From Ornithinimicrobium cryptoxanthini (GTDB lineage: Bacteria > Actinomycetota > Actinomycetes > Actinomycetales > Dermatophilaceae), in NCBI RefSeq assembly GCF_023923205.1, contig NZ_CP099490.1:3472001-3536000 (forward strand): 64,000 bases of DNA. Direction: 5' to 3'. The position numbers and the translations under genes were made by a program. Positions 18,872-27,334 of this stretch are shown piece by piece. Numbering within the stretch: position 1 is the stretch's first letter; each line of letters begins with the position of its first letter. The notes beneath the pieces were generated by a model. The model was not told the origin of the DNA, did no database searches, and saw only the letters and a program-made list of their open reading frames with translations.

Positions 18872-18998
18872 GGCTCTTCACAAACGAGGGTGTAGTTGGG
18901 GTCTGAGGCCGCCGGCCTCGAGGAGAGTGCGGGCGACGTAGTGGGTGAGGTTGCGGGAGGCCGAAGGCCAGTCCGCGGAGGTGCTCATCCTGAGACCT
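18872..18998 (-). pseudogene. ISL3-family transposase 3' remnant with IS end
   Basis: Minus-strand text ending LLEAGGLRPQLHPRL then TGA is the C-terminus of an ISL3-type transposase; compare LLEAGGIRPQLHPGL at 25426 on the plus strand. An extra base in the preceding segment shifts the frame (STSADWPSASRNLTHY against HLRGLALGFRNIGHY). The stop sits inside GGCTCTTCA, the terminal inverted repeat. The rest of the element is gone. Only about 120 bases remain. Confidence 0.75.
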
Positions 18999-19019
18999 CC
19001 CGGGGTTTCAAGCTGAACG

Positions 19020-19250
19020 TCACGCCAAGCGGACCCGCCCCTACCGGCCCAAACCAACGGCAAGATCGAACGCTTCCACCGCACTCTGGCCGACGGCTGG
19101 GCCCACGCCCGGCAGTACAGCACCGAGGCCGAGCGTCGCACAGCGCTAGCCGCGTGGCTACACGCCTACAATCATCACCGGCCCCACACAGCCTGCGGGA
19201 ACCAGCCACCCATCACACGATTGACCAACGTCCCCGGGCACTACATCTAG
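19020..19250 (+). pseudogene. IS481-family transposase C-terminal fragment
   Basis: After a one-base frameshift the plus strand reads NGKIERFHRTLADGWAHARQ, then STEAERRTALAAWLHAYNHH and RPHTACGNQPPITRL with a stop at 19250. This is the end of the DDE catalytic domain of IS481-family transposases, with the third acidic residue in KIERFHRTL. The first two thirds of the gene are absent, so it is inactive. It lies immediately before the intact glycosyltransferase gene. Confidence 0.85.
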
Positions 19251-19267
19251 ACCCGAAAGCCAAGCCA

Positions 19268-20485
19268 ATGCCTCCATCAGCCCAGAACCATACCGCGGAA
19301 CCGATCCCGACACAGCCACGGATACTAGTCATCAACCAGTACGCACTCCCTCGAGATCAAGGAGGCGGGACACGACATGTGGAACTCTTCGATCGCCTCC
19401 CTGGGTACTCCTCTGTCATATACGCATCCGATCGCAACCACACCACCCAAGAAAAACTCACGACAGACGACCCCGCATTTCGCCTCATCAAAGGGCTCAA
19501 ATACGACGGGCCGAGCGGGAAGCGCGTTCTCGGCATGTTCCAATTCGCTTGGGACGCGGCGTACAGAGCACTGAGTAATTCTCAAGACTGGTCTGTTGTG
19601 TACGCCTCGACGCCGCAACCTCTCGCCCTCCTCAGCGGCATCGTCGTTTCCCGGATCAAAAATGTCCCTCTAATCATCGAAATACGTGACTTATGGCCAC
19701 AGTCTCTAGCAGCAGCCAAGATCATCAAGGCGGAGGGGCTCGTCTACAAGATTCTGGATTCAATCATGCGAATATTTTACCGGAAGGCAGATGCCATAGT
19801 CGTCGTTACGCCCAATTGGATACCGGGACTTTCGGATATCGGCATACCTAGGCGTAAGATCTGGTCAATTCCCAACGGTAGTGATCTGATGCGCATGAGT
19901 CCTTACGCTGGAGCTCTTCACGATCCGCCTCGCGCAGTCTTCGCTGGTTCACACGGCGCGAAAGATGGTCTCCACTACATCTTAGATGCGGCCGAGTCAC
20001 TGCCAGACGTATCCTTTACCTTGATCGGCGATGGACCTCAGAAAACATGGGCGATCGGCGAAGCAGCTCATAGGCAACTCGCGAACGTTCGGTTTCATCC
20101 GCCCGTGCCGAAGAACGACTTGGCCGCTGTTCTGGAACAGTATGATATTGGCATTCATGCTGTATCTAAACTACCGATATTCGCCCAAGGCATGAGCCCA
20201 AATAAGCTATTCGATTACCTAGCTGTCGGCCTGCCAGTGGTGAGTAACGCCAAACCAGGTTTGCTCGGGGTCATTGATGATGGTCAGTGCGGGCGTCTTG
20301 GTGGTTGGGATGACTTGGCCGCACTGCTCCACGACGTAGTTACCGCGCTTCCAGCCACCAGGAAGCAGTGGAGTTTGAACGCGGTCCGCGTCATAGAATC
20401 GAGGTACGCGCGGAGCAAGAGCCGGGAGGCCCTTCTAACTCTTCTCGATCACGTTACTCACAGCAAGGAGTCAACTGATGCCTGA
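19268..20485 (+). CDS. GT4-family glycosyltransferase (WbuB-like)
   Basis: 405 residues from the ATG at 19268. A long in-frame upstream extension only covers the IS481 fragment and is discarded. ILVINQYALPRDQGGGTRHV with its glycine-rich acceptor loop, LIIEIRDLWPQSLAAAK, VFAGSHGAKDGLHYILDAA and MSPNKLFDYLAVGLPVVS with the donor-binding D/E region are typical of WbuB-type GT4 enzymes, often fucosamine or N-acetyl-amino-sugar transferases. It is intact although enclosed by IS remnants on both sides, probably cargo left from the polysaccharide locus. Composition is less GC-rich than the core genes. Confidence 0.88.
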   Translation: MPPSAQNHTAEPIPTQPRILVINQYALPRDQGGGTRHVELFDRLPGYSSVIYASDRNHTTQEKLTTDDPAFRLIKGLKYDGPSGKRVLGMFQFAWDAAYRALSNSQDWSVVYASTPQPLALLSGIVVSRIKNVPLIIEIRDLWPQSLAAAKIIKAEGLVYKILDSIMRIFYRKADAIVVVTPNWIPGLSDIGIPRRKIWSIPNGSDLMRMSPYAGALHDPPRAVFAGSHGAKDGLHYILDAAESLPDVSFTLIGDGPQKTWAIGEAAHRQLANVRFHPPVPKNDLAAVLEQYDIGIHAVSKLPIFAQGMSPNKLFDYLAVGLPVVSNAKPGLLGVIDDGQCGRLGGWDDLAALLHDVVTALPATRKQWSLNAVRVIESRYARSKSREALLTLLDHVTHSKESTDA

Positions 20486-20596: not shown

Positions 20597-20908
20597 TGAC
20601 CCCGTTGGGTGGACATTCTGACCGTCAGGTTTCGGCCTGGCAGGAGAGGATGCCCTCATGGGTGCCAAGAGGAAGAGCTACACCCCGAAGTACCGGCAGG
20701 ATGCTGCTCATCTGGTGATCGATACTGGACGGACGATCGTGGAGGTCGCCAGCGAGATCGGTGTCGGGGCGCAGCTGCTGGGCCGGTGGGTGGCTGTCGA
20801 GCGGTCCCGGATGGACGATCCGCCCGAGGCGGTCGACGCGAACGAGCGGGCCGAACTTGAGCGGCTGCGCCGCGAGGTCGCCGAGTTGCGGATGGATCGG
20901 GAGTTTCC
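20597..20908 (+). pseudogene. IS3-family OrfA fragment with left IS end
   Basis: From the ATG at 20658: KRKSYTPKYRQDAAHLVID, then EVASEIGVGAQLLGRWV and ERAELERLRREVAELRMDRE. This is the helix-turn-helix and leucine-zipper N-terminus of IS3-type OrfA. It stops at codon ~84, where IS1634 sequence takes over. TGACCCCGTTGGGTGGACA at 20597 resembles the IS3 terminal inverted repeat. OrfB and the right end are missing. Bases 20486-20596 before it contain nothing recognisable. Confidence 0.8.
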
Positions 20909-20909
20909 T

Positions 20910-21344
20910 GGGACGGACAACTGGTGGACACCATCACCCCACGGGGCCGGCACGCCAGCGAGAACGACCGCAAGCACCGGGCCGAACCGACCTGGGACCA
21001 AGCCAAGCATCCGAAGTCGTGGCGGGCGGTGTGGGCCTACTCAGCCAAACGCGCTGCCCGCGACGCCAAGACCTTGACGTTGCAGGAGAACAAGGCCAAG
21101 GCTGTCATCGCTGGTGAGAAGGCCGCCCGCACCCCACGGTTCGTCAAGACCATCAACGGCACCAAGTCCCTAGACGAAGCCTCCCTGGCCAGAGCACGAC
21201 GCCTGGCCGGGCTGAAAGGCTACGTCAGCAACATCCCCGCCACCGTGATGCCCCCAGCGGAGGTCCTCAGTTCCTACCACGCACTGTGGCAGGTCGAGGC
21301 CTCCTTCCGCATGTCCAAGACCGACCTGCGCGCCCGGCCTCTCT
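20910..21344 (+). pseudogene. IS1634-family transposase, internal part (left of the RIT insertion)
   Basis: Reads GRHASENDRKHRAEPTWDQA, WRAVWAYSAKRAARDAKTLT, TINGTKSLDEASLARARRL and SYHALWQVEASFRMSKTDLR, the middle of an IS1634 DDE transposase. The N-terminal third is absent. The frame is interrupted after DLRARPL by the recombinase-trio element and resumes at 25024; removing the insertion restores RPLFARRRHAIEAH in frame. Confidence 0.88.
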
Positions 21345-21353
21345 CATGCCGAC

Positions 21354-21379
21354 GTCGGCATGAGAGAGGTTATGCCGAC
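21354..21379. other. Predicted recombination core site at the left end of the RIT element
   Basis: Arms GTCGGCAT and ATGCCGAC face each other around a spacer containing AGAGAGG, the complement of the 7-base host duplication CCTCTCT. Joining the right end to the left end of a circularised element would create exactly this site in the opposite orientation. It is nested in a 32-base perfect palindrome, 21338-21369. Inverted recombinase arms around a 7-base crossover is the standard tyrosine-recombinase site plan. Confidence 0.65.
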
Positions 21380-21450
21380 GTCTTAGTTATGCCGACCCCG
21401 GTGATGAGGGTGCTGGTCAGCGAACTGGGGGCGGTTGAAAGGTCGGCATA
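21363..21450 (+). repeat. Left terminal inverted repeat of the RIT element
   Basis: 88 bases identical to the reverse complement of 24943-25030. The repeat contains three copies of the ATGCCGAC arm (two direct, one inverted at its inner end), probably recombinase-binding sites. Its inner edge lies one base before the stop of the third recombinase gene. Confidence 0.95.
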
Positions 21451-21451
21451 A

Positions 21452-22441
21452 TCAGAGGCTGTCGAGGAAGGCCAGCACGTCGGCGGGTGGGGTGTACGTG
21501 CCGGGCGTGACTGATGGGTCGCGGGTGCGGTCGATCGCGGTCTGCTTGATGGTCATGTCGGCGTGGAGGTAGACGTCGGTGCTGGTGGTGTTTTGGTGGC
21601 CGAGCCAGAGCGCGATGATGGCGACGTCGACGCCGGACTGGAGCAGTCGCATCGCCGCGGTGTGGCGCAGCGTGTGCATGGTGACGTGCTTTCTGCCCAG
21701 GGAGGGGCACTGCTTGGTGGCCGTGATCAGGTGTTTGGCCAGGCGCCGCTCGAGCGCGTCGCGGGACAGGTGCTGCCCGCGGGGCCCGGGGAAGAGCGCG
21801 ACGCCGGGTCGGGTGGACCGCTCGTCCAGGTATGGGACGAGGATCGCGAGGGTGCCGGCGGTCAGCGGGGTCGCGCGGTACCGACGTCCCTTGCCGGTGC
21901 AGGTCACGTGCGGCCCGGTACCGGTGTGGACGTCACTGGTGGTCAGTGCGATGAGTTCGCTGATTCGCAGCCCTGTCTGAACAGCCAGGGTCAGCAGCGC
22001 CCTGTCCCGGTGCCCGGTCCATGTGCCGGCATCGGGAGCGGCGAGTAGCGCTTCGGTCTCGGCCTCCTCAAGGAACTGCACCACCCGCGGCGCGCGGCGT
22101 CGTGCCGGTAAGGCCAGGACCCGCGCGAGTGTGTCGGCGTGCTCGGGGTGGTCGGGCAGGGCCACGGCCAGCACGGCACGGATCGCGGTGAGCCTGGCGT
22201 TGCGGGTGGTCGGACTGTTGCCGCGGTCGGTTTCGAGGTGGTCCAGAAACGCGGTGATCGCCTCGACGTCGAGCATGCCCAGGACGAGCTTGTCCGCCGG
22301 GAGACCGGTGGTCGCGCTCAGGTGCTTGATGAGCAGCCGCCAGGTGTCGCGGTAGGAGGCGACCGTGTTCGGCGACAGCCCTTTCTGGGCGTGCGCGTGG
22401 TCGGTGAAGTAGGACTGCAGGGACGGGCCCAGGAGCGTCAT
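21452..22441 (-). CDS. RIT element tyrosine recombinase, third gene (RitC)
   Basis: 329 residues. An N-terminal SAM-like core-binding domain (FTDHAHAQKGLSPNTVASYR) is followed by the catalytic domain with Arg in TGLRISELIAL, HTLRHTAAM, the LGHQNT histidine and the Tyr nucleophile in STDVYLHADM. All catalytic residues are present. The ATG overlaps the second gene's stop as ATGA. It is the last of three coupled genes and ends inside the left terminal repeat region. Confidence 0.92.
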   Translation of the reverse strand: MTLLGPSLQSYFTDHAHAQKGLSPNTVASYRDTWRLLIKHLSATTGLPADKLVLGMLDVEAITAFLDHLETDRGNSPTTRNARLTAIRAVLAVALPDHPEHADTLARVLALPARRRAPRVVQFLEEAETEALLAAPDAGTWTGHRDRALLTLAVQTGLRISELIALTTSDVHTGTGPHVTCTGKGRRYRATPLTAGTLAILVPYLDERSTRPGVALFPGPRGQHLSRDALERRLAKHLITATKQCPSLGRKHVTMHTLRHTAAMRLLQSGVDVAIIALWLGHQNTTSTDVYLHADMTIKQTAIDRTRDPSVTPGTYTPPADVLAFLDSL

Positions 22442-23361
22442 GACGGCTCCTTCGGCTGGTTGAGACGGGTCGCGGCCAGGAACATTAGCTCCGGCGTCGC
22501 TGACAGGTACCAGTAGGTGTGCGTGGTGCTGGTGTGCCCTAACCAGGTCGCCAGCAGCGTCAGGGTCCGTTGCGGGTCACCGCCGTCGGCGTAGGCCGCG
22601 GCCATATGGCCGGTCGCGAACGTGTGCCGTAGATCGTGCAGTCGGGGGCGGGCCGCCCCGCGCGGGAGGAGACCGGCGGTGGTGACGACGCGGGCGAAGT
22701 AGGCCTCGATCGTGGACCGGTGGTAGCCGGTGCCGCGCGAGCTGACCAGGAGTGGGGCGTCGGTGGCGGGGCGGGTGGCGCTGCGGGCGGGCAGCCGCCC
22801 GTATGTCTTCAGCGCCTCCAGGGTCGTGGGGTGCACAGGGACCAGCCGGTCTTTGCGTTTGCTCGCCCGGATGGTCAGCACGCCCGTGGCGGTGTCGATG
22901 TCGGCTGGGGTCAGTCGCAGTGCTTCCCCGATCCGCATCCCGGTCGCGGCCAGCAGGGCGATGACGGTGCGCATCGTCGCGGCTTGCAGCTGACGGGTGA
23001 ACACCTGCGGGCAGGTGTCCAGGAGGGCGTCGAGGTCGGCCTGGGTGTAGATGAACGGTGCCGCACGGCGCGGGCCGGCGGGCAGGACGCCGCGGGGTGG
23101 GACCTGCACGTCGACGCCGATCGCGTCCAGGTACTTGGCGAAGGTGCGGACCGCGCCCAAGCGCATGCCCCACCAGCGCGGGTCCGCATCGGCGGGCAGC
23201 CGCGCCCAGGTGACGGCGTCGGCGGTGGTGAACGTCTCCTTGCCCTGAGCGGTGAGCCAGGACAGGAACTGACCGACGCGGTGTTCCAGCACGGACAGGT
23301 CGTAGCCCAGGGCGCGGCGCATCGCCAGGTATTCGGTCAGGTGCTCTTGCAGGGTGCTCAT
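22438..23361 (-). CDS. RIT element tyrosine recombinase, second gene (RitB)
   Basis: 307 residues from the ATG at 23361, which overlaps the first gene's stop (ATGA); a start 21 bases further up would deepen the overlap. N-terminal core-binding domain (EYLAMRRALGYDLSVLEHRV), catalytic Arg in ATGMRIGEALRLT, HDLRHTFATGHM, WLGHTST and Tyr in HTYWYLSATPE. Intact catalytic set. The 'LGYDLSVLEHRV...FLSWL' opening is typical of the second RIT protein. Confidence 0.92.
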   Translation of the reverse strand: MSTLQEHLTEYLAMRRALGYDLSVLEHRVGQFLSWLTAQGKETFTTADAVTWARLPADADPRWWGMRLGAVRTFAKYLDAIGVDVQVPPRGVLPAGPRRAAPFIYTQADLDALLDTCPQVFTRQLQAATMRTVIALLAATGMRIGEALRLTPADIDTATGVLTIRASKRKDRLVPVHPTTLEALKTYGRLPARSATRPATDAPLLVSSRGTGYHRSTIEAYFARVVTTAGLLPRGAARPRLHDLRHTFATGHMAAAYADGGDPQRTLTLLATWLGHTSTTHTYWYLSATPELMFLAATRLNQPKEPS

Positions 23362-24896
23362 GGTCCGGGCACCTTCCCCCATGTTGGGGCCAGGACGCGC
23401 AGCGCGGCCAGGTCCGTACGGGCGTAGATCATCGTGGTGTCGGTGCGGGCGTGGCCGAGCAGCTCACGTGCCTCGACCAACGAGCCGCCGCAGGCCAGGA
23501 CGGCGGTCGCGGCGGTGTGCCGTAACGCGTGGGCGTGCACCGTGCCCAGCCCGGCCACTGTGGCCAGGTGCGCGACGACGCCGGAGATGCCCTGTCGTCC
23601 CAGCCCGACCAGCGGCGGGCGGGACCGGGTGAAGACGGCTCGGTCGCTGGCGCCGACCGGGCGCCCGTCGCGAAGGTAGTCGACCAGCGCTTGCCCCACA
23701 TCGACCGGGACAGGCAGCCTCAGAACCCGTCCGCTCTTGCCATGGACCATTAGCGTCCCTGCGTGCCAGTCCACATCGTCCAACGTCAGCGTGGCGACCT
23801 CCCCGGCGCGCAGCCCTAGTCGGCTGATCAGGACTACGATCGCCCGGTCCCGCAGTCCGGTCGGTGTGCTCGTATCGGCAGCCGCGACCAAGGCGAGTAC
23901 CTGCCCCGGCGTCAACGCCCGGGGCAGGGCGGGGGCAGCCGGTGTGGCTGGGCGCAGGATGCCCGCCGAGATCGAGCGGCTCACCTGGCCGGTCAGGAAG
24001 GCCCAGTCGAGAAGGCCGCGCATCGCCGAGACCAGGTGGCGCCGTGAGGACAGCGAGTACCCCTGACCTCGTCGGGCCACGTACCGGTTGACCGCGGTCA
24101 CGTCGACTCCGTCCCAGACCAACTGTCCGTCCTCGATAGGAAGCTCGGTCACGAAGTCCTGCACCCAGCCGCGGCACTCGGCCGCCCATCCCTGGCTAAG
24201 ACCGCGCGGGGCGCGCAGGTGAGCGATCCAGTCCTCGAGAAGTTGCTCGGCCGGGGCGGTCGGCACTGGTGGCGGCTGTGACGGTGGCGTCAGGAGGCTG
24301 GTGGCCAGGAAGAAGTTGCGCACCGTCACGATCCGTCGCGCCGAGGACGGATGCCAGTCGCGTCCTCGGGACTGCGAAGCCACGAACCTGGTCAGAACGG
24401 TGTCGTCCAGATCCTGGACGTCCAGCCGCTGTCGGGACATCCAGCAGCTCAGCCGTGCCGCCGTGCATGCCACCGAGCTGGCCGTGCCAACCGCGTACCC
24501 CTGCTCCTTCAGCCAGGACACCAGGTCGAGCACGACCTCATCCAGCGGGCCTCCCTGCAGTCGTGGCCGACCATCCAGGCCACGGCTCGCCGGCGGCCGC
24601 AAAATCAGGACGCCGTGGTCCGACAGGAACCGCTTGACCAGCGGCAGGTACTGGGCAGCGGCAGTGACCTTACTACCGGATCGCTGCTCCTCCGCAGCGA
24701 CGTAGGCATCGACGAGGTCCTCGTCCACGTCCGCGGCGAACAGCCCACGGCTCCTCACCCAGACCGAGAACCGGCCGAACGCCAGCACCGCCCTCCGCGA
24801 CCGTTCCGACGAGATCTTCGAGACCGTCAGCCACGCCGCCAACGGCTCGGCCCACGCCTCCACAGGATCCACACGATTGACATCCATACCGGCCAT
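23358..24896 (-). CDS. RIT element tyrosine recombinase, first gene (RitA)
   Basis: 512 residues, longer than the other two because of an extra N-terminal region of about 180 residues (KISSERSRRAVLAFGRFSVW and KRFLSDHGVLILRPP). The catalytic domain has Arg in RLGLRAGEVATL, HALRHTAATA, LLGHARTDT and Tyr in MIYARTDLAAL. The ATG at 24896 has GAGGAGG 5 bases upstream. It starts 46 bases inside the right terminal repeat, so the repeat probably also carries the promoter and may link binding to autoregulation. Confidence 0.92.
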   Translation of the reverse strand: MAGMDVNRVDPVEAWAEPLAAWLTVSKISSERSRRAVLAFGRFSVWVRSRGLFAADVDEDLVDAYVAAEEQRSGSKVTAAAQYLPLVKRFLSDHGVLILRPPASRGLDGRPRLQGGPLDEVVLDLVSWLKEQGYAVGTASSVACTAARLSCWMSRQRLDVQDLDDTVLTRFVASQSRGRDWHPSSARRIVTVRNFFLATSLLTPPSQPPPVPTAPAEQLLEDWIAHLRAPRGLSQGWAAECRGWVQDFVTELPIEDGQLVWDGVDVTAVNRYVARRGQGYSLSSRRHLVSAMRGLLDWAFLTGQVSRSISAGILRPATPAAPALPRALTPGQVLALVAAADTSTPTGLRDRAIVVLISRLGLRAGEVATLTLDDVDWHAGTLMVHGKSGRVLRLPVPVDVGQALVDYLRDGRPVGASDRAVFTRSRPPLVGLGRQGISGVVAHLATVAGLGTVHAHALRHTAATAVLACGGSLVEARELLGHARTDTTMIYARTDLAALRVLAPTWGKVPGP

Positions 24897-24942
24897 AGCC
24901 GCCTCCTCGGGTTCGATACCCGAGCATCCCGCCGTCGAAGAC

Positions 24943-25030
24943 TATGCCGACCTTTCAACCGCCCCCAGTTCGCTGACCAGCACCCTCATCACCGGGGTCG
25001 GCATAACTAAGACGTCGGCATAACCTCTCT
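24943..25030 (-). repeat. Right terminal inverted repeat of the RIT element
   Basis: 88 bases, exact inverse of 21363-21450. It ends in CCTCTCT followed at once by IS1634 coding sequence (TCGCCAGACGC). Unlike the left end it lacks the outer 18-base palindrome CATGCCGACGTCGGCATG. Confidence 0.95.
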
Positions 25031-25257
25031 TCGCCAGACGCAGACACGCGATCGAGGCCCACCTGACCATCGTGTTCACCGCCCTAGCCGTCTCCCGCGA
25101 GGTCCAGAACCGCACCGGGCTAGCGATCCGCAACGTCATCCGCCAGCTGCGCCCGCTGCGCTCAGCGACCATCGCGATCAACGACGCCACCCAGACCTTC
25201 GGCCCCGCCGTCCCAGACACCGAGCAGGCCGTCCTCGACGCGATCCGCCGCCGCTGA
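25024..25257 (+). pseudogene. IS1634-family transposase C-terminal part (right of the RIT insertion)
   Basis: Continues the interrupted gene: RRRHAIEAHLTIVFTALAVS, then NRTGLAIRNVIRQLRPLRS and EQAVLDAIRRR with a stop at 25257. RHAIEAHLTIVF is the conserved end of the IS1634 DDE domain. Together with 20910-21344 it makes one transposase that lacks its N-terminus. Confidence 0.88.
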
Positions 25258-25563: not shown

Positions 25564-26103
25564 TCAGGCCTTGTTCCAGTCTTGGATTATGAAACGACCA
25601 CATATCTGGAGCGCCCTTACCATACCAACCGGCTCAAATCCGGCGCCCACAATGCCGCGACGAGAAGCCATATTTGAGACTTCAGTGTCAATCAGGATCC
25701 ACCTCTCAGGCCATTCACTCGCGGCGGCCAGCGCCAACTGGACAAGGAGCGCCCGGTACACCCCCTGGCCCCGGCAGTCGAGAGATACATAGCAATTCCT
25801 AATGAGACAACTCGTCTCCGGGACCCGAATATGCTCCGGGCGCGTCCTACGTGGTCCTGGTATCTTCCGAACCCACCCGTGGCCGACCACCCTTCCTCCC
25901 TTCATAGCGAAAAGGCCTATATCTGCGGTGGACTTTACCGCAGCGGCGAACGCCGCGGTGGGGGGATCCGCGCGCGCTTCGCCGACGCGGAGTAGATTGG
26001 AACGGGTGATTCGTTCGAACTGAACGTCCGCGAGTGGGCGCCCTTGCGGAGCACCACCTGGCCAGCCGTAGATGGCCTGCTTCCGCACGGCAAACAGTCT
26101 CAT
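25564..26103 (-). CDS. GNAT-fold N-acetyltransferase
   Basis: 179 residues from the ATG at 26103, which has GGAGAA 6 bases upstream and follows the flippase stop by one base. SCLIRNCYVSLDCRGQGVYR then ALLVQLALAAA is the GNAT beta4-alpha3 acetyl-CoA pyrophosphate loop (R/QxxGxG/A type, here RGQGVYR). The C-terminal part (SNMASRRGIVGAGFEPVG) is the usual 'asR.iy...GF..vg' motif. It probably acetylates an amino group on a sugar or peptide of the local envelope pathway. The acceptor is unknown. Last gene of a leftward FemAB-like/flippase/GNAT operon. Confidence 0.78.
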   Translation of the reverse strand: MRLFAVRKQAIYGWPGGAPQGRPLADVQFERITRSNLLRVGEARADPPTAAFAAAVKSTADIGLFAMKGGRVVGHGWVRKIPGPRRTRPEHIRVPETSCLIRNCYVSLDCRGQGVYRALLVQLALAAASEWPERWILIDTEVSNMASRRGIVGAGFEPVGMVRALQICGRFIIQDWNKA

Positions 26104-26104
26104 G

Positions 26105-27334
26105 CTAGTTTCTCCTAACCAAGCGGTACGCCACGATCCAGGTCGCCACATAATTGGCGAGTTGCCCTATGGAGGCGCCTAACACAAGGCTCACGGGATC
26201 GCGTTCCATCGCGTAGAACCCGTAGGCAAAGGCGAGGACAAGCACTGGACGCGACAAATCAATAGCAATTGACGCCCGAGCCGCCTGATAGAGGGTAAAC
26301 ACACTGGACACCGGGGCGACAATCAGGCTCGCGATGGCACTCACGGCAAGGGCACGTATGTAGTTGGGGATGTCAGGCCAGTCCGGTGCCACCCATTGGC
26401 ACACGGTCAACAGGACAGGCGAGTAGACGAAAGTTGCAACGGCGGATGCCAGAACAAATAACATCCCCGTGGCCGCCCTAAACAACTGAAGGCTTGAACG
26501 CCCGGCACGCATCCTTGAAGCGATCTCGGCGGACACGACCTGCCCTACCCCCTGCGTTATCAGAGCGGCGGGTGCTTGAAGCAGTCGTTGGCCGACCGCG
26601 AGCGCGCCCGCGGCTACAGGACCGAACAGGCTAGCGGTAAGAAGTATTGGAATGTTTGACCCAAAAGAGTTTAAGAGTGCCGAGGGAGCAAAAACAACCG
26701 GAAATTTCCAATAGGTGACTGCCACCTCTCTGAGGGGCTCCGCCCGCGGCCTCACTGAGTATCGTGAAGCACCCTTAACTAGTGGAACAATCCCAATCCA
26801 CCGTCCCACCAACTGTCCAATCAGGAGTCCGTAGCCCAGTCCGATCCGCGCCAAACCGAGGCCAACCTGGATCGCTGCTGTTGCAACTCCTTGCACAACG
26901 TGACGCGTGGCTACACGTCGATAGTGACCATCGCGTAGTGCCAGTTGTGTCAGCAAAGCAAAGAGTCCGTTGGCTACTACTAGTCCGGCCGCCCATAGGC
27001 CATATGTCCAATCAGGCACTGCCCCGAACTTTGATAGGGTCGCACAGACAATCAGGGTCGCAACGCTCGTGAGCAGAAGACTGAGTAGGCCTAGCCACGC
27101 GAGCAGGCCGACTTCTCGAGTCGCTTCGGGCAGTAGTAAAGCCCTATCAAACTTGAGACATGCGGCCGGCGCGGCGACCGCAGCCAGTGCCAATATCGTC
27201 CCAAAGATGCCGAAGGCTTCTGCCCCATACGTTCGAGTTAAGAGTGGCAGCGAAAGCAAGGCTATACCCTGGGCTACAACGGCCCCAAGGGTGATCTGGG
27301 CCACTCCCGAATACAGATACCGAAAGCCACTCAT
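26105..27334 (-). CDS. Wzx-type polysaccharide flippase
   Basis: 409 residues with about twelve hydrophobic helices, full length for the MATE/Wzx superfamily. The start YLYSGVAQITLGAVVAQGIA followed by LPLLTRTYGAEAFGIFGTIL is diagnostic of Wzx proteins (the 'l.R.yg.e.fG.f' loop). It should flip undecaprenyl-linked repeat units across the cytoplasmic membrane. Its ATG overlaps the stop of the FemAB-like gene (ATGA). The GC content is moderate. It is a distant relative of the truncated flippase at 14543 and likely the working flippase of this locus. Confidence 0.88.
   Translation of the reverse strand: MSGFRYLYSGVAQITLGAVVAQGIALLSLPLLTRTYGAEAFGIFGTILALAAVAAPAACLKFDRALLLPEATREVGLLAWLGLLSLLLTSVATLIVCATLSKFGAVPDWTYGLWAAGLVVANGLFALLTQLALRDGHYRRVATRHVVQGVATAAIQVGLGLARIGLGYGLLIGQLVGRWIGIVPLVKGASRYSVRPRAEPLREVAVTYWKFPVVFAPSALLNSFGSNIPILLTASLFGPVAAGALAVGQRLLQAPAALITQGVGQVVSAEIASRMRAGRSSLQLFRAATGMLFVLASAVATFVYSPVLLTVCQWVAPDWPDIPNYIRALAVSAIASLIVAPVSSVFTLYQAARASIAIDLSRPVLVLAFAYGFYAMERDPVSLVLGASIGQLANYVATWIVAYRLVRRN

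What the first reader, a model, noticed from the sequence alone, without database searches (positions are those of the whole stretch)
21338..25030. Intact recombinase-in-trio (RIT) element with perfect 88-bp ends, inside an IS1634 gene
Seen: three minus-strand tyrosine recombinases with full catalytic sets, coupled by ATGA overlaps, enclosed by 88-bp identical inverted repeats. The host IS1634 reading frame is restored exactly when the element is removed. Known: RIT elements follow this plan but few are so cleanly delimited. The first recombinase starts 46 bases inside the right repeat, so the ends may also be promoter and operator. The mosaic of intact genes and perfect ends suggests recent or current activity.
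Basis: partly seen in the sequence, partly recalled or inferred. Interest (0 to 1): 0.8.

Follow-up and report, generated by a model that had tools for sequence, protein, structure and literature searches.

The report
Three-recombinase transposon with two-headed end
This is an intact jumping gene that carries three DNA-cutting enzymes, and comparing it with dozens of relatives shows that one of its two ends carries a small mirror-image stretch, probably a spare landing site, which suggests how this poorly understood family may move.

Summary
Window 21338-25030 is an intact recombinase-in-trio (RIT) element with three overlapping tyrosine-recombinase genes and exact 88-bp inverted ends, inserted in an IS1634 transposase gene. 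That gene is a 5'-truncated remnant.

The left end carries an extra 25 bp: an 18-bp palindrome plus an inverted copy of the 7-bp sequence (CCTCTCT) that also flanks both ends. Such a cap occurs at exactly one end in 45 of 55 elements (window included), at both in 0, and in 7 of 2615 control windows.

The capped end faces the same half of the target gene in 35 of 35 same-site pairs at E<=1e-8, while the cap is on the ritA or ritC side equally often (22:23). Three unusual elements with no cap or two caps carry the same target half on both sides. This fits a circular intermediate with a palindromic junction holding two inverted 6-bp crossover sites. One is used to integrate; the other stays in the integrated copy.

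[quoted passage not shown] I could not read Ricker 2013, so I cannot say that the cap is unpublished.

The parts
21338..21344 (+). outer core copy (CCTCTCT) on the capped side; the crossover core proper is taken as the 6 bp CCTCTC
   Evidence: core boundaries inferred from 50 elements
21345..21362 (.). cap: 18-bp perfect palindrome CATGCCGAC/GTCGGCATG, present at this end only
   Evidence: same plan in 45 of 55 elements
21363..21369 (-). inner core copy, inverted (AGAGAGG); with the cap arm and the end repeat it makes a second complete site-like sequence that stays in the integrated element
   Evidence: function inferred
21363..21450 (+). left terminal inverted repeat, 88 bp, with half-site motifs ATGCCGA at 21372 and 21389 and TCGGCAT at 21443
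21452..22441 (-). ritC: tyrosine recombinase, 329 aa
22438..23382 (-). ritB: tyrosine recombinase, 314 aa in the longest ORF (the start shared with relatives gives 307 aa)
23358..24896 (-). ritA: tyrosine recombinase, 512 aa; model shows three N-terminal four-helix bundles before the catalytic domain
24943..25030 (-). right terminal inverted repeat, 88 bp, identical to the left one
25024..25030 (+). core copy (CCTCTCT) on the uncapped side
20924..21337 (+). IS1634 transposase remnant, part before the insertion
   Evidence: NF033559 match
25031..25257 (+). IS1634 transposase remnant, part after the insertion, to its stop codon
   Evidence: NF033559 match; frame

Best explanation
The element is an intact RIT transposon without cargo. 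Shown by comparison: its ends consist of inverted repeats and a 6-bp core; at one end only there is a palindromic cap flanked by the core and the inverted core; the cap side is fixed by the target and the gene orientation is free. Inferred: the element moves as a circle whose joined ends read end-repeat, core, cap arm, cap arm, inverted core, end-repeat, which is a perfect palindrome holding two inverted recombination sites (TCGGCAT-N10-ATGCCGA). RitA/B/C recombine either site with a similar 6-bp core in a target gene, often a transposase gene. Strand exchange appears to need identity mainly at the two core bases beside the end repeat and to tolerate mismatches in the other four. The unused site and the cap stay inside the integrated copy. 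That leaves every copy with one complete attachment site, able to recombine with other copies or targets. The division of labour among the three recombinases and the choice between cut-and-paste and copy-out movement are not resolved.
For: Joined ends form a perfect palindrome over 97 pairs from the centre. A one-sided cap was found in 45 of 55 elements (22 on the ritA side, 23 on the ritC side) and on both sides in 0; control flank windows reach that score in 7 of 2615. Of 18 plasmid loci chosen by hand, 9 show a one-sided cap at the same score and 1 a weaker one. In 50 capped elements the three core copies agree pairwise at core positions 3-8 of N10 in 31-46 of 50, against about 12-19 between different elements. 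Elements at the same point of homologous targets have the cap on the same target half in 35 of 35 pairs at E<=1e-8, with gene orientation 16 same and 19 opposite. The window, L019 and L035 share one IS1634 site with the same cap side; the window's genes run opposite to the other two. Of 69 elements tested, only L023 (no cap), L130 (two caps) and L081 (no cap) have similar flanks in the same direction on both sides (for L081 only E 7e-4), as exchange through either site predicts. In L130 the left end has outer core TCCGTT and inner TCCCTT, and the right end has them swapped, so each core has been the outer one. L086 and L089 are 100% identical over 3143 bp, yet all three cores differ, and the inner core of L086 equals both outer cores of L089.
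Against: No circle junction or tandem junction was found: 0 in viral contigs, 0 of 203 loci held, 0 of 396 phylum genomes; the pattern was exact and would miss drifted half-sites. 10 of 55 elements fail the cap threshold. By eye five of these have weaker one-sided caps, L146 an odd-centred one and L037 palindromes at both ends, but L081, L102 and one of the two L138 elements show none. 34 of 48 elements have at least one core mismatch, and in 12 the inner core is the odd one out, which simple integration from a symmetric circle does not give by itself. At E<=1e-6 without a position rule, 21 of 95 flank matches are crosswise; many come from different insertion points in one target family (listed). 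At E<=1e-4, 28 pairs have a crosswise hit at equal distance beside 65 same-role pairs; I take the crosswise ones, all with E above 2e-7, for composition noise. In L086 and L089 the cap is on the ritA side in both, so the role swap would also need an inversion. L023 and L130 entered the 69 because I had already noticed them. No experiment was possible.
Confidence: 0.7

Rival explanations
1. Strand-biased copy-out: one strand of the element is copied out as in SEs, and the cap is a hairpin-templated by-product of that process rather than a second working site.
For: In 14 of 19 caps that depart from the consensus both arms carry the same change, and in 12 of these 14 it is unlike the element's own outermost half-site. 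That looks templated, but 45 of the 50 caps had been selected for being palindromes, so the count is biased. Copy-out with a 6-bp footprint is described for SEs (PMC10214605, passages).
Against: In L130 both cores occur as the outer core, and cap-less or double-capped copies sit between similar target halves, which is most easily explained by recombination at the sites themselves. The two ideas are not exclusive.
Confidence: 0.3
2. The cap is a regulatory or termination signal for the rit genes.
For: It is a strong palindrome next to the operon.
Against: It lies on the ritA side in 22 and the ritC side in 23 elements; its side follows the target, not the genes.
Confidence: 0.04
3. The cap palindrome belongs to the target, which is chosen for it.
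For: It lies between the outer core and the element.
Against: 18 of 19 IS1634 copies compared show no palindrome at the site (the other holds its own RIT), and caps look alike in unrelated targets.
Confidence: 0.02
4. A decayed element that keeps identical ends, for example by gene conversion, and no longer moves.
For: Single copy in the genome; the host gene is itself a remnant.
Against: Three intact genes with full catalytic sets and three identical cores.
Confidence: 0.25

Closest known systems
RIT (recombinase in trio) elements, e.g. ritA1B1C1 and ritA2B2C2 of Cupriavidus metallidurans CH34 and those of pHG1
   Same: Three overlapping tyrosine-recombinase genes, about 3.5 kb, ATGA overlaps, inverted repeats, insertion in transposase genes (PMC3414803 and PMC2864759, passages). 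The window RitC matches places in the pHG1 stretch at 43-44% identity.
   Different: RitA here is about 110 aa longer than most relatives', with three predicted N-terminal bundles instead of the two described for RitA (PMC8138268, passages). Perfect 88-bp repeats against '28-9 bp' (PMC3414803) and 34 bp (PMC10214605).
[quoted passage not shown]
   Same: Several tyrosine recombinases, specific targets; a 6-bp spacer in SEs (PMC10214605, passages).
   Different: Four-gene sets (IntA/Tfp/IntB/Srap; GinA-D); no one-sided palindromic cap appears in the passages read.
Tn554
   Same: Multi-recombinase transposon with a 6-bp footprint and target preference (PMC10214605, passages).
   Different: TnpA/TnpB/TnpC, where TnpC is a counterpart of Srap/GinD; imperfect terminal repeats.
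Tn916/Tn1549 and CTnDOT integrases
   Same: Short crossover region with tolerated heterology; CTnDOT is cited as needing 2 nt (PMC5871717, passages).
   Different: One integrase in Tn1549; conjugative elements; no second attachment site in the integrated form is mentioned in the passages read. A parallel in mechanism only.

Membership tests
RIT element | three adjacent tyrosine-recombinase genes with short overlaps | tested here: met
RIT element | catalytic residues present in all three | tested here: met
RIT element | the proteins are relatives of RitA/B/C of described elements | tested here: met
   RitC matches places in the pHG1 stretch (L185) at 43-44%; the trio recurs in order in many relatives (and the annotated records among). 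RitA and RitB were not compared with pHG1, and the CH34 archetype was not compared at all.
RIT element | length about 3.5 kb with terminal inverted repeats | tested here: met
   3.69 kb, 88-bp repeats; scored relatives with a repeat are mostly 3.3-3.4 kb
RIT element | RitA with two sequential core-binding domains (PMC8138268, passages) | tested here: inconclusive
   two bundles in the expected place plus a third before them (pTM 0.42, so the domain arrangement is uncertain); bundle 1 resembles bundle 2 (E 3e-4)
RIT element | RitC with an extra C-terminal helix (PMC8138268, passages) | not tested
   no RitC model was made
RIT element | mobility | not testable with these tools
SE / GInt | four-gene set that includes a recombinase-like protein without the catalytic motif (SE Tfp, GinC) and a fourth protein | tested here: not met
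   three genes between the ends, all with catalytic residues
Tn554 | tnpA/tnpB plus tnpC | tested here: not met
   the third protein here is a tyrosine recombinase with catalytic residues; Tn554 proteins were not aligned

The most novel reading that the evidence does not exclude
RIT elements are double-headed site-specific transposons. Their circle junction is a palindrome with two inverted attachment sites, integration through either one leaves the other intact inside the chromosome, and the spare site keeps the core of an earlier target. Integrated copies would therefore stay reactive, can land in either orientation, and can exchange target halves with other copies, which would rearrange the host genome.
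Probability: 0.5. Interest if true: 0.75.

Novelty: new member of a known kind. Interest (0 to 1): 0.58.

Why it matters
[quoted passage not shown] The end anatomy worked out here gives an exact predicted circle junction, a 6-bp core rule, and a rule that links caps to target halves, all of which can be tested with one plasmid assay. If it holds, it adds a recombination design with two attachment sites, one of them left behind in each insertion, and it would explain inverted target halves next to some RIT copies.

Tried and rejected
Chance palindrome: rejected by the control windows (7 of 2615 reach the score). Cap as regulator or as part of the target: disfavoured by side counts and by uninterrupted target copies. 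Circle junction in sequence collections: none found, so the intermediate stays inferred. A leader hairpin before ritA is not clearly stronger than shuffles (z -1.38). Promoter scan at the right end: nothing. Flank comparisons without a position rule or at a loose threshold gave crosswise matches too and were replaced by the strict one. Searches for earlier reports of the cap. PMC3414803 (passages) mentions a '28-9 bp inverted repeat and overlapping palindromic sequence flanking ritA and ritC', so a palindrome was seen before. Ricker 2013 and Nielsen 2017 are not held, and Van Houdt 2009 was not looked up, so I make no claim that the plan is unpublished.

Rows dropped before counts: 52 of 107 RitC hits (23 no repeat found, 19 contig ends, 5 short upstream, 4 length, 1 run of N); L033 and L093 from the core categories (half-site register differs between the two ends); L092 and L136 from the target fragments. 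Five weak caps (L024, L025, L042, L059, L074) were added by eye to make the 50-element set, and these plus ten plasmid elements (L171 among them, with a weak cap) make the 60. L173 has a palindrome of 9 of 10 pairs 22 bp outside its repeat; the rule would count it, but it is out of register by eye and I left it out of the 10 and the 60. The ends of L023 and L130 were set by hand.
Full report
What is there. Window 21338-25030 holds three minus-strand tyrosine-recombinase genes, ritA (23358-24896), ritB (22438-23382) and ritC (21452-22441), coupled by ATGA overlaps. All match Phage_integrase, with catalytic residues conserved against relatives. The end repeats are identical over exactly 88 bp, 21363-21450 and 24943-25030. 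The genome has one full copy. The target is an IS1634 transposase gene, in frame once the element is left out. It is a remnant whose match starts at profile position 257 of 483, with an IS3 fragment in front. In 18 of 19 IS1634 copies from relatives that I compared the site is uninterrupted; the nineteenth, L152, is interrupted by that genome's own RIT element.

The two ends are not alike. Outside the left repeat lies an 18-bp palindrome, and beyond it a direct copy of the 7 bp (CCTCTCT) that also ends the right side; the palindrome's inner side carries the same 7 bp inverted, as the start of the left repeat. The whole stretch 21338-21369 is a perfect palindrome. If the ends are joined as an excised circle, the junction is a perfect palindrome over 97 pairs from its centre.

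How general it is. Of 107 RitC hits, 55 (window included) had a terminal repeat, a plausible length and both flanks. The cap, at least 9 of 10 pairs, is at exactly one end in 45 of 55: ritA side 22, ritC side 23, both 0, none 10. Control windows reach the score in 7 of 2615. If ends were independent at the same rate, about 9 double caps would be expected (own arithmetic). Of 18 plasmid loci picked by hand, 9 show a one-sided cap and 1 a weaker one; in the others no repeat was found, the repeat ran into repeated flanks, or no cap stood in register.

The core. Between the cap arm (TCGGCAT) and the end half-site (ATGCCGA) lie 10 bases, of which positions 3-8 are largely shared by all three copies: cap-outer against cap-inner 31, 42, 38, 36, 46 and 45 of 50; inner against other end 35, 41, 40, 39, 46 and 45; the control between different elements is about 12-19. 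In 48 elements (two dropped for register) all three cores are identical in 14, the outer one differs in 9, the far one in 5, the inner one in 12, and all differ in 8. Elements with a mismatch, by position from the cap side, are 23, 10, 15, 16, 4 and 6, so the two bases beside the end repeat are the most constrained. There are 46 distinct inner cores in 48, so the core is not a fixed part of the element. CTnDOT is cited as needing 2 nt (PMC5871717, passages).

Cap side follows the target. Among 60 capped elements I compared translated flanks. At E<=1e-8 and equal distance to the insertion point (3 aa or less), 35 pairs match cap flank with cap flank or other flank with other flank (23 on both flanks), and none match crosswise. 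Gene orientation is the same in 16 and opposite in 19; the pairs form 10 target groups. Without the position rule, at E<=1e-6, 21 of 95 matches were crosswise, many of them from different insertion points in one target family. A loose run gave 65 same-role and 28 crosswise pairs; all crosswise hits there had E above 2e-7 and I judge them noise. The window, L019 and L035 share one IS1634 site and the same cap side; the window's genes run opposite to the other two.

Exceptions that support the rule. L131 is a normal copy in what looks like an ISL3 transposase gene (one of the 58 fragments matches ISL3, member not named; motif recalled): its cap faces the downstream half. L130, in the same genome, has caps at both ends and downstream halves of two diverged copies on both sides. 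L023, in another genome, has no cap and upstream halves on both sides. Of 69 elements tested, only L023 (E 3e-93), L130 (E 7e-47) and L081 (E 7e-4) have flanks that resemble each other in the same direction, and none of the three is a one-cap element. For L081 I did not establish which half it is. In L130 the outer and inner cores are TCCGTT/TCCCTT at the left and TCCCTT/TCCGTT at the right, so each core has served as the outer one. L086 and L089, identical over 3143 bp in one genome, differ in all three cores, and the inner core of L086 is the outer core of L089.

Mechanism. The simplest reading is a circle with two inverted attachment sites. Integration through either site gives either gene orientation but always puts the cap on the same target side and leaves the second site intact inside. 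Exchange of that spare site, or of the end junctions, with another copy would give cap-less and double-capped elements between identical target halves. What is shown is the anatomy and its statistics; the circle, the order of strand exchange and the roles of RitA, RitB and RitC are inferred. No junction matching the exact consensus pattern was found in viral contigs, in 203 held loci or in 396 genomes of the phylum.

Cap arms. In 31 of 50 caps both arms are consensus, in 14 both arms carry the same change, and in 5 they differ. Joint change suggests templated correction of the palindrome, or selection for symmetry. Caution: 45 of the 50 had been selected for palindrome score, which favours matching arms.

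Targets. Of 58 flank fragments scanned (one per element), the commonest matches among the 25 of 86 NCBIfam families listed are IS256 (6), IS1634 (5), ISH6 (3), and IS21 helper ATPase, IS3, IS66 and group II intron reverse transcriptase (2 each), with single IS701, ISL3, ISAs1 and IS481. Pfam adds the ArdC N-domain and a zincin-like metallopeptidase (3 each), DUF3489 (2) and a histidine-kinase domain (1). Families overlap, so these numbers do not add up to elements. Genes of other mobile elements are common but not the only targets.

RitA. The 512-aa RitA has about 110 more N-terminal residues than most relatives listed; L019, L020 and L035 share them. The model (18 sequences, mean pLDDT 79.7, pTM 0.42) shows three four-helix bundles at 12-93, 119-198 and 215-301 before the catalytic domain. 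Bundle 1 resembles bundle 2 (E 3e-4). Best structural matches are Xer recombinases (XerA, XerH, XerD), Tn1549 Int and lambda Int. RitA is described with two core-binding domains (PMC8138268, passages), so this is a three-domain variant if the model is right.

Known and new. RIT elements are known (PMC2864759, PMC3414803, PMC8138268, PMC10214605; passages read). PMC3414803 noted an inverted repeat and an overlapping palindrome and found that they did not fit usual recombinase sites. I found no description of the one-sided cap in the passages read or the listings seen, but the main RIT paper (Ricker 2013, look-up) is not held. The window element is a new member of a known kind; the two-site reading concerns the whole family.

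Noticed in passing
window 23358-24896: RitA carries an extra N-terminal four-helix bundle (three in all); also long in L019, L020 and L035.
   Followed up: partly
window 20658-20920: IS3 transposase fragment directly in front of the truncated IS1634 gene; two insertion sequences appear fused, before or after the RIT insertion.
   Followed up: partly
window 18896-20485 and 25564-27334: The insertion-sequence debris lies between a WcaI-like glycosyltransferase gene and two minus-strand genes without an NCBIfam match, one of which looks like a polysaccharide flippase by eye only.
   Followed up: partly
window 24893-24960: GC-rich hairpin just before the ritA ribosome-binding site; similar-looking hairpins precede ritA in several relatives by eye, but the fold is not clearly stronger than shuffles.
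   Followed up: partly
L184 2053-3192 and 6525-7664: A RIT-like trio on a Sagittula plasmid lies between two exact inverted copies of over 1.1 kb that include a toprim-domain gene; the element's ends were not identified.
   Followed up: partly
L028, L029, L067, L068: Contigs that are exactly one RIT element long with the repeats at both contig ends, perhaps collapsed multi-copy elements.
   Followed up: no
L037: Element with a palindromic cap at both ends, one facing what looks like a DUF3489 gene and the other an apparently different gene (by eye).
   Followed up: partly
L174, L176, L177, L178: RIT elements on plasmids at one shared target site; ArdC-type antirestriction domains were matched among the flank fragments, and L176 and L178 carry such genes next to the trio.
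   Followed up: partly
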